Assembly (NCBI RefSeq): GCF_007992455.1
Contig: NZ_BKAH01000009.1
Location: 1 to 64,000 of the forward strand
DNA: 64,000 nt
Origin: Microbacterium saccharophilum
GTDB taxonomy: Bacteria; Actinomycetota; Actinomycetes; Actinomycetales; Microbacteriaceae
Direction of reading: 5' to 3'
Shown: in pieces, positions 6,911 to 10,660 of the stretch
How positions within the stretch are numbered: the stretch's first letter is position 1
Layout of the letters: each line of letters starts with the position of its first letter
Translations under genes and position numbers: made by a program
The notes under the pieces: generated by a model
What the model was told of the DNA's origin: nothing
Database searches by the model: none
What the model saw: only the letters and a program-made list of their open reading frames with translations

Positions 6911-7933
6911 ATGCTGACGATCGATCCCGCCGCGCTCGAGCAGGCTGCGGCGAAGCGGGCGTTCACCGGGATCGCCACGGTGGATGCCGGAGACGAACGC
7001 ACGCTGGCACGGGCCTTCGGATTCGCGCACCGCGCCTTCGCCGTGCCGAACACGCCCGACACGCGGTTCGCGATCGCGAGCGGCAGCAAGACGTTCACGG
7101 CGCTGGCCGTCATGCGGCTCGTCGAAGAGGGAGCGCTGCGGCTGGAACAGCCCGTCCGCGAGATCCTCGGCGCCGACCTGCCGCTCATCGACGACGCCGT
7201 GACGGTCGAGCATCTCCTCACCCACACGTCCGGGATCGGCGACTACCTCGACGAGGATGCGGACTGGGAGGCGTCCGACTACGTGCTGACCGCCCCGGTC
7301 CACACACTGACGACAGCCGAGGCGTTCCTGCCGCTCGTCGACGGGTTGCCGCAGTCCTTCCCGCCGGGCGACCGCTTCGCCTACTGCAACGGCGGGTACA
7401 TCGTGCTCGCGATCGTCCTCGAGCGCCTGACCGGCGAGACGTATCATGACGTCGTGCGGCGAAGCGTGTTCACTCCGGCCGTCCTCACGCAGACCGACTT
7501 CCTCCGCTCCGACGAGCTGCCGGGGACCGCGGCGCTCGGCTACCTCTTCGAAGACGGGGACCGCGTCAACACGCTGCACCTCCCGGTGCTCGGCAACGGC
7601 GACGGCGGCGCATACACGACCGCGGCCGACCTGCACCGCTTCTGGCGCGCCCTCTACGGCGGCCGCATCGTGTCGCCGGCGACCGTGGCGGCCATGACGA
7701 TCCCGCGGCACGATGTGCCGGACGAGGGGATGCGGTACGGCATGGGGTTCTGGCTGCACCGCACCGCTCCCGCCGCCGTGCTGGAGGGATACGACGCCGG
7801 GGTGTCGTTCCGGTCGACGCACATCCCGGCATCCGACACGACGGTGAGCATCCTCGGCAACAGTTCGGAGGGCGCATGGCCTGTCATCGGCGTCGCAGCA
7901 GAGGCCGTCGACGCGTGGCTGGTCAGACGGTGA
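6911..7933 (+). CDS. Serine hydrolase of the beta-lactamase / class C PBP-like family
   Basis: A 340-residue cytoplasmic-looking protein. The catalytic SxxK motif is S57-G-S-K60 (ASGSKTFTALAV) and the second motif YxN is Y158-C-N160 (FAYCNGGY). The C-terminal KTG/HTG-type motif is not obvious; the region near YDAGVSFRS may be its equivalent. A strong ribosome binding site (AGGAGG) precedes the ATG. No signal peptide is visible, so a role in cell-wall or antibiotic chemistry is unlikely; family members are often esterases or peptidases of unknown substrate. Its last 11 bases overlap the end of the convergent Nudix gene. Confidence 0.85.
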   Translation: MLTIDPAALEQAAAKRAFTGIATVDAGDERTLARAFGFAHRAFAVPNTPDTRFAIASGSKTFTALAVMRLVEEGALRLEQPVREILGADLPLIDDAVTVEHLLTHTSGIGDYLDEDADWEASDYVLTAPVHTLTTAEAFLPLVDGLPQSFPPGDRFAYCNGGYIVLAIVLERLTGETYHDVVRRSVFTPAVLTQTDFLRSDELPGTAALGYLFEDGDRVNTLHLPVLGNGDGGAYTTAADLHRFWRALYGGRIVSPATVAAMTIPRHDVPDEGMRYGMGFWLHRTAPAAVLEGYDAGVSFRSTHIPASDTTVSILGNSSEGAWPVIGVAAEAVDAWLVRR

Positions 7934-8630
7934 CGGGCAGTTCGCGCGTCCCGTCCCACGGTTCCGTCCAGCCGAGGCGGTCGAACAGGCCGTCCAGCAC
8001 GATCGCGGTGAACCCCCAGACGAGGTGGATGCCCGTGGCGTGCGGCACATGGAAGGCCGGTCCGCGGAACTCCTGACCTTCCCGCCGGATCACGGTGACA
8101 CCGCGGTTCGCCGGGTCGAGGAGGTCGGCGACCGGGGCGCGGAAGACGGCAGCCGACTCCGCCTCGTCGACGACGCGGACGGGCGTCGGATGCCGCCACC
8201 AGGCGAGCACCGGGGTGACGAGGTGCTGCGAGAAGGCGAGCGGGAGCGTCTCGAGGGTGCCGAGCACGTCGACCCCGGCCGGGTCGAGGCCGGTCTCCTC
8301 CTCGGCCTCGCGCAGCGCGGCGGCGATGGGCTCTTCGCCGCCGTCGAGACGGCCGCCCGGGAAGGCGACCTGGCCGGGGTGCGAGCGCAGCGTCGCCGCG
8401 CGGGCGAGGAGCAGCACGTCGAGATCGCGCGAGACGGCGTCCGCCGCGTGGACGCTCCGCACGCCGTCGAGGACGCCGAACAGGATGAGCACGGCGGCGG
8501 CGCGGGGGGCGGTGGGGACCGGAGCTCCGCGCAGCGCCGAGAAGCCGCGCCCGGCGGAGCCCGCGGCGACGGCGGCGGTCAGCGCCTCCAGCTGCGCTCG
8601 GGCGCTGAGCGGAGCACGTTCGGCAGGCAC
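7923..8630 (-). CDS. Nudix hydrolase, CoA pyrophosphatase type
   Basis: A 235-residue protein. The Nudix box spans about residues 92-116 (GGRLDGGEEPIAAALREAEE with ETGLD) and holds the REAEEE metal-binding core. It is preceded by SHPGQVAFPGG, which matches the extended signature of the CoA-diphosphatase branch (the E. coli NudL and peroxisomal NUDT7 group). The expected reaction splits CoA or acyl-CoA into 4'-phosphopantetheine and 3',5'-ADP. The GTG start at 8630 has TAGCCT 6 bases upstream. An unusual 20-bp-period array starts 9 bp beyond that hexamer and covers its -35 region, so expression may be controlled there. Confidence 0.85.
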   Translation of the reverse strand: MPAERAPLSARAQLEALTAAVAAGSAGRGFSALRGAPVPTAPRAAAVLILFGVLDGVRSVHAADAVSRDLDVLLLARAATLRSHPGQVAFPGGRLDGGEEPIAAALREAEEETGLDPAGVDVLGTLETLPLAFSQHLVTPVLAWWRHPTPVRVVDEAESAAVFRAPVADLLDPANRGVTVIRREGQEFRGPAFHVPHATGIHLVWGFTAIVLDGLFDRLGWTEPWDGTRELPVTV

Positions 8631-8636
8631 CCGTTC

Positions 8637-8642
8637 AGGCTA
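8637..8642 (-). promoter_or_regulatory. Probable -10 element, leaderless Nudix gene
   Basis: TAGCCT on the minus strand ends 6 bases before the GTG at 8630. The matching -35 position (about 8660-8665) lies inside the first unit of the periodic array. Confidence 0.55.
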
Positions 8643-8650
8643 CGCCGGTT

Positions 8651-8765
8651 GTCGAGCGCGTATCCGTGCTGTTGAGCGCGTATTCGCTGCGTCGAGCGCG
8701 TATTCGGGAGGGTGAGTGCGCATCCACGTCGAATACGCAGTCAACCCGTTGAATACGCGCTCGAT
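8651..8765. repeat. Six-unit array with exact 20-bp period, four direct and two inverted copies
   Basis: 15-bp units related to GTTGAGCGCGTATTC begin at 8651, 8671, 8691 and 8711; inverted copies begin at 8731 and 8751. Each is separated by a 5-bp spacer of unrelated sequence. The units at 8671 and 8691 differ at one base, while the one at 8711 is the most diverged. The array lies between the Nudix gene (minus) and a small proline-rich gene (plus), overlapping the Nudix -35 region. It has no open frame of interest. It could be a multi-site operator, a REP-like repeat cluster or a DNA architecture site. Confidence 0.8.
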
Positions 8766-8843
8766 GTCAAGGGGCTGGGCTGCGCGCGGTGTTCGGGGTG
8801 AGGGTGCGGGGGAACGCGCATCTGCGCATGAGAGGAGCACGCC

Positions 8844-9038
8844 ATGAGCACCGCCTTCCCCGACGCCCCCGGCGAGACGCCCGGCCCCGCCGGCCCACCG
8901 GATCCGGGACTGCCCGGCGCCCCGGAGGAGCCGCTGGCACCGTATCCGTCTGAGCCGCTCGCGCCGAACCCCACGGAGCCGTTCGCGCCGAACCCGGAGG
9001 AGCCGCTCACCGACCCGGACGGGCCGAACCGCTTCTGA
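8844..9038 (+). CDS. Small proline-rich protein with four octapeptide repeats
   Basis: A 64-residue protein of unknown function. Residues 27-58 are four copies of an 8-residue unit close to P-x-E-P-L-A-P-N (PEEPLAPY, PSEPLAPN, PTEPFAPN, PEEPLTDP). The whole protein is low-complexity, acidic and probably disordered. AGGAG lies 7 bases before the ATG, which argues for translation. No signal peptide or membrane segment is seen. It ends 7 bp before the convergent efflux-pump gene. A glycine/serine-rich frame also exists on the opposite strand, but it lacks a comparable start. Confidence 0.6.
   Translation: MSTAFPDAPGETPGPAGPPDPGLPGAPEEPLAPYPSEPLAPNPTEPFAPNPEEPLTDPDGPNRF
8922..9017 (+). repeat. 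24-bp coding tandem repeat (4 copies)
   Basis: Four degenerate 24-bp units encode the octapeptide repeats of the small proline-rich protein. Copy number may vary between strains. Confidence 0.65.
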
Positions 9039-9045
9039 CCCGACG

Positions 9046-10660
9046 TCAGGTGGACGGGCGCGCCGGGTCCTCCGAGACCTGCGCGTCCTCCTCCTGCCGC
9101 CGGCCCGCACCGAGCGAGAACGTCGCGGCGAGGCCGACGAGAAGGAACCCCGCGGCGGTGAACGCCGACGCGCGCGTGCCGTCCGAGAAGGCCGCCTCGG
9201 CGGCGGCTCCGAACGCCTCGGTCTCGGGGTTCGCCGACAAGCCGGCGATCGCGCCGCCGGCCGAGTCGACGACGGCGCTCACGACCGTGTCGGCCTGCGC
9301 GGCGGGAACGCCCGCGTCATCGAGGGATGCGCTGAGCGCCGCGCCGGTCGTCGTGAAGAGGACCGTGCCGAGGATCGCCACGCCGAGCGCCGAGCCGACC
9401 TGACGCGACGTGGACTGCGTGCCCGATCCCTGACCCGACAGCTGCACGGGCACGTCCTGGAGGATGACGCCGGTGAGTTGCGCCGTGGCGAGCCCGACCC
9501 CGAAGCCGTAGACGAACAGGGCGGGGACGAGCCATCCCCAGGCCGCGTCCGGCGCGATGATGAACCCGACCCACGCGACGCCGATGATCTCCGCGACGAT
9601 GCCGAGACGGACGATGACGACGGGCGACCTTGCCGCTGAAGGCCCCCGCCGCGCCGCTGGCGAAGAACGAGCCGAGGGCGAGCGCGAGCAGCAGGAAGCC
9701 GGTCTGCAGGGCGTCGAATCCGAGCACGAACTGCAGCCACAGGGGCAGCGAGAGGATGATGCCGAACTCGCCGAGCGAGACCACGAGAGCGGCGACGTTG
9801 CCGTTGCGGAAGGACGGGATGCGGAAGAGAGAGAACTCCAGGAGCGTGCCCTTGCCCTGCTTCGCGCGCGCCAGTCCCCACCAGATGAAGCCGACGAGCG
9901 CGACGACGGCGATCGCGAACGCGACGGGGATGGGCGACAGCTCGAACGGCCAGGTGAACGAGCCGATCGTGAAGTCCTGCTCGAGCGTCCACCAGCCATA
10001 GGTGCGGCCCTCGATGAGCCCGAAGACGAGCGAGCCGAACAGGAGGACGGACAGCACGGAGCCGACGATGTCGAGGCGGCCGCGGCGGGGCTCCTTCGAC
10101 TCGGCGACCGTCAGCAGCACGCCGATGATGATGATGATGCCGAGCGGGACGTTGATGCCGAACGCCCAGCGCCACGAGAACGCCGTCGTCAGCCAGCCGC
10201 CGAGGAGCGGGCCGACCGCGGCCATGCCGCCGATGGTCGAGCCCCACACCGCGAACGCGATGCCCCGCTCCTTGCCGCGGAAGGTCGCGTTGATGAGCGA
10301 GAGGGTCGTCGGCAGGATCATCGCGCCGCCGACGCCCTGGACGAGGCGGGAGAGGATCAGGATGCCGCCGTCGGGTGCGAGCGCCGCGAACACCGACGAG
10401 GCCGCGAAGAGCACGACGCCGAGCAGCATGACGCGGCGGCGACCGAAGCGGTCGGCAAGGCTGCCGAAGAGCAGGAGGAGCGCGGCGAAGACGAGCGTGT
10501 AGGCCTCCTGGACCCACTGGACCTCGGTCGAGGTGATGCCGAGCTCGTCGACGATCGACGGCACCGCCACGTTCACGATCGTCGAGTCGACGATGATGAG
10601 CGACACGGCGATGCTGATGAAGACCAGCCCTATCCAGCGCTTCCGAGCGGCAGCTTCCAC
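9046..10660 (-). pseudogene. DHA2-type MFS drug efflux transporter, frameshifted
   Basis: The gene is split between two frames. Residues 1-about 344 read from the GTG at 10660 and contain the MFS motif A (GSLADRFGRRR), motif C region and about ten membrane helices of the 14-helix DHA2 family (EmrB/QacA type). Near 9621-9632 the frame must shift: GAFSGKVA is in the first frame and PVVIVRLGIVAEIIG continues in the second, down to the stop at 9046. One extra or two missing bases in the GGTCGCCCG stretch would explain it. The second frame ends with a normal C-terminus (SLGAGRRQEEDAQ). Both halves look otherwise undamaged, so a sequencing error or a very recent mutation is likely. An AT-rich operator-like dyad precedes the start. 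Confidence 0.8.

What the first reader, a model, noticed from the sequence alone, without database searches (positions are those of the whole stretch)
8651..8765. 20-bp-period array of six related sites, four direct and two inverted, overlapping the Nudix promoter
15-bp units close to GTTGAGCGCGTATTC start exactly every 20 bp at 8651, 8671, 8691, 8711 and, inverted, 8731 and 8751, with unrelated 5-bp spacers. Exact periodicity near two helical turns places all units on nearly the same DNA face, which suits cooperative protein binding. The first unit covers the expected -35 of the Nudix (CoA pyrophosphatase-type) gene. It is not a CRISPR: units and spacers are too short.
Basis: seen in the sequence. 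Interest (0 to 1): 0.65.

Follow-up and report, generated by a model that had tools for sequence, protein, structure and literature searches.

The report
Dispersed 20-base repeat hairpin family
The six evenly spaced repeats are one copy of a family of small repeat arrays scattered between genes in a few related Microbacterium species; their RNA can fold into chains of hairpins, and they are probably not a switch for the neighbouring Nudix gene.

Summary
The array is real: six units at 8651-8765, exactly 20 bp start to start, four direct and two inverted. It is probably not a Nudix operator. Three more such arrays lie in this genome, and 6 of 366 genus genomes have unit pairs (3 to 252), with none in a reversed control. 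At the Nudix locus 0 of 31 other genomes examined have it; the nearest relative (87% identical) has 31 unrelated bases there. In five related carriers the 14-nt core (CGAGTGAGTATTCG) hardly varies (mean minor-base frequency 0.02, spacers 0.39). The core is self-complementary with G.U pairs on one strand only, so neighbouring units can form a hairpin with the spacer as loop: 39 of 39 runs tested fold better as sense RNA. Arrays are intergenic, concentrated between convergent genes, and often begin at a stop codon, sometimes supplying it; close opposite runs always face inward. It works like REP elements, but a hairpin needs two units, and no Y1 transposase or reverse transcriptase was found in 11 genomes. 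Best reading: a new REP-like family; how it spreads is unknown.

The parts
8651..8665 (+). unit 1 (direct)
8671..8685 (+). unit 2 (direct)
8691..8705 (+). unit 3 (direct)
8711..8725 (+). unit 4 (direct, most diverged)
8731..8745 (-). unit 5 (inverted)
8751..8765 (-). unit 6 (inverted)
8651..8755 (.). stretch not matched in nearest relative G082, which has 31 nt between the same two flanking matches
7923..8630 (-). Nudix gene (PF00293), neighbour only; 20 bases lie between its 5' end and unit 1
8844..9038 (+). 64-aa proline-rich ORF, neighbour only; no Pfam match; the stretch 8756-9039 is 85% identical in G082

Best explanation
The array is one of four found in this genome of a dispersed, REP-like intergenic repeat family limited to a small group of Microbacterium. 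Arrays are present or absent at matching places in relatives and change by whole 20-bp units (shown); I infer that they arrive as insertions, often into a gene's 3' end, though loss in the relative is not excluded at each site. On one strand the core of each unit is complementary to the core of the next, with G.U pairs, so a transcript through the array would fold into a chain of hairpins, and inverted runs into a longer stem (shown by folding, not measured). I infer that the arrays act, or are tolerated, as transcript-end elements (3'-end protection or weak termination, as proposed for REPs). The copy beside the Nudix gene is most likely a by-product of spreading rather than a Nudix regulator.
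For: Other arrays in the genome. 6 of 366 genus genomes with pairs: 252, 190, 66, 33, 8, 3; control 0 in all. Absence at the matching place in G082 for the window array and for C3:58481; the other two arrays lie in stretches G082 lacks at that place. In G025 an array stands where the C-terminus of the G423 gene continues, and the unit's TGA is the stop. Unit-number change at three of four orthologous loci, G031 v G210: 2 v 7, 2 v 5, 1 v 5, 3 v 3; 43 of 102 adjacent spacers identical against 4.4% between arrays. Core minor-base frequency 0.022 v spacer 0.39 in 93 interior units of five carriers; slots just outside arrays look like random sequence. Folding: 39 of 39 runs more stable as sense RNA, mean z -3.68 v -0.70; core pairing 83% v 58%, in this genome 87% v 68%; in the other carriers core positions 9 and 11 vary only T to C, turning G.U into G-C. 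0 of 66 runs inside ORF calls, 35 of 66 convergent v 66 of 348 gaps, 45 of 66 with a sense stop on the outer side, median distance 3 nt.
Against: The window array lies between two gene starts, where no annotated gene ends. In tandem gene pairs orientation is not clearly biased (10 sense v 7), and 7 of 66 runs are antisense to both neighbours. No terminator or promoter consensus at the window array. The G of the G.U pairs never becomes A, although A-U would also pair, so something besides pairing constrains the core. The 39 folds share one consensus, and only one is from this genome. In this genome 6 of 10 unit pairs have C.A at one core position and 3-4 of 10 have A.C at two others. No mobilising enzyme found. 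An earlier, cruder gene caller put 3 of 56 arrays inside ORFs.
Confidence: 0.6

Rival explanations
1. A sequence-specific DNA-binding protein binds the phased units cooperatively, as roadblock, insulator or chromosome-organising site; the core is its binding site.
For: Near-invariant core against variable spacers; 154 of 160 spacings exactly 20; among neighbouring runs under 1500 bp apart 18 of 21 inward, 3 same, 0 outward; partial DNA palindrome of the core; the G positions stay fixed although A would pair too.
Against: The mismatches of the palindrome outside its centre are G.T on one strand, as RNA pairing predicts; period 20 is kept automatically by tandem duplication; arrays sit mostly at gene 3' ends, not promoters; no binding protein identified.
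Confidence: 0.22
2. A neutral minisatellite that spreads and decays with no function.
For: Copy-number variation, presence beside unlike genes (read by eye), absence in most of the genus.
Against: Core invariance although arrays are kept at orthologous places between G067 and G210 or G031, about 77-90% identical there; clean array edges. Frequent recopying could mimic this.
Confidence: 0.13
3. An operator array controlling the Nudix gene.
For: Position just upstream of the Nudix start; unit 1 covers the place where a -35 would lie.
Against: No units at this locus in 31 of 31 other genomes examined, five carriers among them; arrays of the same kind beside other genes.
Confidence: 0.03
4. A guide-RNA array (CRISPR-like) with very short spacers.
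For: Constant repeat with variable spacer.
Against: 6-nt spacers, two orientations, dozens of loci in the richest genomes, neighbouring spacers often identical.
Confidence: 0.01

Closest known systems
REP / BIME elements (GTAG- and CGTC-tagged; PMC3733652, abstract and passages; PMC2817692, passages)
   Same: Short, extragenic, many copies in the richest genomes, mostly between convergent or co-directional genes and downstream of genes, ends sometimes supply the stop codon, inverted dimers and tandem clusters, thought to act as RNA elements; CGTC REPs also lack a dedicated transposase.
   Different: Here one unit has no loop of its own: the hairpin forms between two neighbouring units with the spacer as loop. 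Strict 20-bp tandem period; no GTAG head; no Y1 gene found; actinobacterial (no word beginning 'actinobacter' occurs in the main text of PMC3733652).
MIRU minisatellites of mycobacteria (recalled, no paper seen; brought none)
   Same: Dispersed intergenic arrays with variable unit number, abutting stop codons, in an actinobacterium.
   Different: Units recalled as about 46-101 bp with small ORFs; here 20 bp and strand-specific self-complementarity.
Iteron or operator arrays (recalled)
   Same: About 20-bp direct repeats on a regular grid.
   Different: Not tied to one origin or promoter; found at dozens of loci in the richest genomes.

Membership tests
REP/RAYT | extragenic, many copies per genome | tested here: met
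   0 of 66 runs inside ORF calls (3 of 56 with a cruder caller); up to 252 unit pairs per genome, but only 4 arrays found in the window's genome
REP/RAYT | imperfect palindrome able to form a hairpin | tested here: inconclusive
   core self-complementary with G.U, but the stem forms between two units rather than within one
REP/RAYT | GTAG / GT(A/G)G head (PMC2817692) | tested here: not met
   unit matrix and flanks show no such fixed head
REP/RAYT | Y1 (RAYT) transposase in the genome | tested here: not met
   PF01797 in 0 of 11 genomes, six carriers included; the control search rings in 5 of 14
CGTC REP | CGTC tag at one end of a hairpin (PMC3733652 abstract) | tested here: not met
   no fixed CGTC at unit ends, though some spacers contain it
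MIRU-type minisatellite | unit number varies at orthologous loci | tested here: met
   three of four loci compared differ
MIRU-type minisatellite | 46-101 bp unit (recalled) | tested here: not met
   20-bp unit
Intrinsic terminator | hairpin followed by U run | tested here: not met
   0 found in window 8400-9100; no T run seen by eye right after the arrays listed
Cooperative protein-binding array | specific bound protein | not testable with these tools
   needs pull-down
CRISPR | 24-48 bp repeats with non-repetitive spacers (as in PMC3733652) | tested here: not met
   14-nt core, 6-nt spacers often duplicated
RT-copied repeat | reverse transcriptase in carriers | tested here: not met
   PF00078 in 0 of 11 genomes, six carriers included; the control search rings in 3 of 14

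The most novel reading that the evidence does not exclude
The arrays are polar boundary elements: close opposite runs always face inward (0 outward among neighbouring runs under 1500 bp apart), bracket single genes or convergent gene ends, and are bound by an unknown protein or folded in RNA so as to stop polymerases or readthrough arriving from outside, a bacterial insulator-like system that spreads by an unknown copying process without a Y1 transposase or reverse transcriptase.
Probability: 0.1. Interest if true: 0.85.

Novelty: new variant of a known kind. Interest (0 to 1): 0.52.

Why it matters
It adds an actinobacterial, strictly periodic, two-units-per-hairpin family to the small dispersed repeats of bacteria, with unit-count variants at orthologous loci, array-free relatives, carriers from one array to dozens, and no sign of two enzyme families that could copy it. 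That makes 'how do such repeats spread without a RAYT, and are they RNA elements or protein sites' testable in one small group of species.

Tried and rejected
Reverse-transcriptase-templated growth of arrays at broken ends (suggested by inward facing and exact period): no RVT_1 in 11 genomes. RAYT-driven spread: no Y1_Tnp in 11 genomes. Composite transposon with array ends: interiors hold unlike, ordinary-looking genes (read by eye), and the enoyl-CoA hydratase-like gene bracketed by arrays here sits beside the same acyl-CoA dehydrogenase-like gene without arrays in G082; I saw no target duplication in the alignments. Phage or plasmid origin: no match of the window array in phages or plasmids, nor of one G067 array in plasmids; the exact two-unit pattern is in 0 viral contigs. 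Known RNA family: in window 7900-9300 only two sub-threshold Rfam hits, neither at the array. Wider occurrence: 398 family genomes (nine of them of the genus) gave this genome plus three single hits with 2-3 mismatches, while the reversed control gave two; an exact scan of GTDB r220 gave only Microbacterium pullorum contigs (records near the window may be left out). Literature: the 13-mer core occurs in no held paper; other searches listed nothing on such a repeat in Microbacterium, in a library that lacks most subscription journals.

Single unit copies in this genome (for example C1:70869, C3:362774) were taken from a look at the DNA as coding-like, without a gene test; the excess of single units within 2 mismatches over the control (180 v 53) was not pursued, since many look like ordinary codons.

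Full report
OBSERVATION. The Nudix gene (PF00293) lies left on the minus strand, and a 64-aa proline-rich ORF right on the plus strand, so the array sits between two gene starts. Single units are above chance with a strict pattern but not with a degenerate one; it is the regular row that is not chance (control).

OTHER COPIES. In its own genome (2.99 Mb, 31 contigs) three more period-20 arrays were found: C3:57639 (2 units), C3:58481 (5 units), C13:5513 (2 units). With the window array that is 15 units. Across 366 genomes of the genus, 6 have unit pairs within 3 mismatches: G210 252, G067 190, G031 66, G025 33, the window's genome 8, G423 3; the reversed control gave none. An earlier search with another pattern found 4 of 148. 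G025 is M. pullorum Sa4CUA7 by matching contig lengths, which places the window in Microbacterium. Outside the genus only noise-level single hits appear. In a tree of the Nudix gene alone (32 genomes) the five other carriers form a clade (95/90), next to the window's genome plus the array-free G082 (90/91, below the tool's mark for firm support). So the family belongs to one small group, and either G082 lost it or the window's genome gained its arrays separately.

EMPTY SITES. G082 is 87% identical at the Nudix gene. Its match stops at window 8650 and resumes at 8756, with 31 nt between. At this locus 0 of 31 other genomes examined have units. The C3:58481 array is absent from G082 between the same two genes. 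The C3:57639 and C13:5513 arrays lie near one end of 3.4-kb and 2.6-kb stretches that G082 lacks at that place. In G025 an array stands where the AMP-ligase-like gene of G423 goes on for more residues, and the unit's TGA is the stop. At another locus the gene of G423 and G025 already ends in CGAGTGAG where G210 and G031 have the first unit; whether that is a seed or a remnant is open.

ANATOMY. In 222 units from five other carriers (units chosen by similarity) the core is CGAGTGAGTATTCG followed by about 6 loosely patterned bases; this genome has CGAGYGCGTATTCG (15 units). Of 160 same-strand spacings 154 are 20. To avoid choosing units by their core, I read the 93 interior grid slots of arrays in those five carriers: 71 have no mismatch, 18 one, 3 two, 1 five; mean minor-base frequency is 0.022 in the core and 0.39 in the spacer; slots just outside arrays look random. 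Neighbouring spacers are identical in 43 of 102 cases against 4.4% between arrays, so units probably duplicate in tandem. At four loci compared between G210 and G031 (about 90-93% identical there) unit numbers are 7 v 2, 5 v 2, 5 v 1, 3 v 3. Sense-strand spacers hold 2.6% A against 15.6% in intergenic DNA, unexplained.

PLACEMENT. In 37 regions (17 chosen around arrays, 20 of 20 kb spaced along G210 and G067) there are 66 runs, orthologous loci counted separately and genes called by my own script: 0 inside ORF calls; 35 convergent, 14 divergent, 17 tandem gaps, against 66, 100 and 182 of 348 gaps of at least 40 nt, array gaps included. A cruder caller had put 3 of 56 arrays inside ORFs. The 5' side of the run meets a stop codon of a sense gene in 45 of 66, median distance 3 nt, and in 16 of these 45 the gene runs into the array. 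In tandem gaps orientation is 10 sense v 7, not clearly biased. Of the 20 spaced stretches, 13 have no array. Neighbouring runs under 1500 bp apart: 18 inward, 3 same, 0 outward. In the lists of exact pairs for G067 (98 of 98) and G210 (100 of 159), which overlap those data: 17 inward, 7 same, 0 outward; label shuffles reached the inward count in 258 of 20000 (G067) and 0 of 20000 (G210), and shuffles without any outward pair were 817 and 458. Part of this follows from convergent placement.

STRUCTURE. The core pairs with the next core on the sense strand with G.U pairs: 83% of core positions pair in sense and 58% in antisense over 158 adjacent pairs (105 different); in this genome 87% v 68% over 10. 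The two-base centre, A.G/G.A in the other carriers, is C-G/G-C here. Of 39 runs of at least three units without an opposite run nearby (38 from other carriers, 1 from this genome), all 39 fold more stably as sense RNA, mean z -3.68 v -0.70. These share a consensus and are not independent. The window array itself folds well on both strands because of its inverted units (z -4.05 and -5.62). In the other carriers T-to-C changes at core positions 9 and 11 keep pairing; G-to-A changes that would also keep it are absent, so a second constraint exists.

MECHANISM. Shown: dispersal, presence or absence at the compared sites, unit-number change, core conservation, strand-specific self-complementarity, placement. 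Inferred: arrival by insertion, RNA-level action at transcript ends, and that the window copy is a by-product. Not shown: what moves it; neither Y1 transposase nor reverse transcriptase was found in 11 genomes, six of them carriers. Protein binding remains the main rival.

COMPARISON. REP elements match in placement, stop-codon provision, inverted dimers and presumed RNA role (PMC3733652, abstract and passages) but not in unit architecture, head motif or transposase (PMC2817692, passages). I therefore say it works like a REP family and do not file it as one. What is said of MIRU is recalled.

Noticed in passing
window 8927-9008: A 24-bp period repeat (3.4 copies by TRF) inside the 64-aa proline-rich ORF, giving repeated Glu-Pro-Leu-Ala-Pro-like motifs.
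   Followed up: no
window 9046-10660 (-): An MFS-type transporter reading frame (by eye, no family search) appears split between two overlapping ORFs near 9630.
   Followed up: no
L031:310-3677 and L032:3054-5618: Two stretches of this genome missing at the same place in G082 hold what look like gene fragments (aldehyde dehydrogenase-like, MFS-like, by eye) and end near a repeat array.
   Followed up: partly
L104:15047-16310: In M. pullorum (G025) a gene with no counterpart at that place in G423 is bracketed by two inward-facing arrays; the gene family was not tested.
   Followed up: partly
spacers of arrays in L103-L116 and L158-L177: Adenine is almost absent from the sense strand of spacers (2.6% of 978 bases v 15.6% in intergenic DNA).
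   Followed up: partly
window 8637-8642 (-): A TAGCCT hexamer six bases before the Nudix GTG, conserved in G082, could be the -10 of a leaderless promoter (recalled motif); the consensus scan found no promoter.
   Followed up: no
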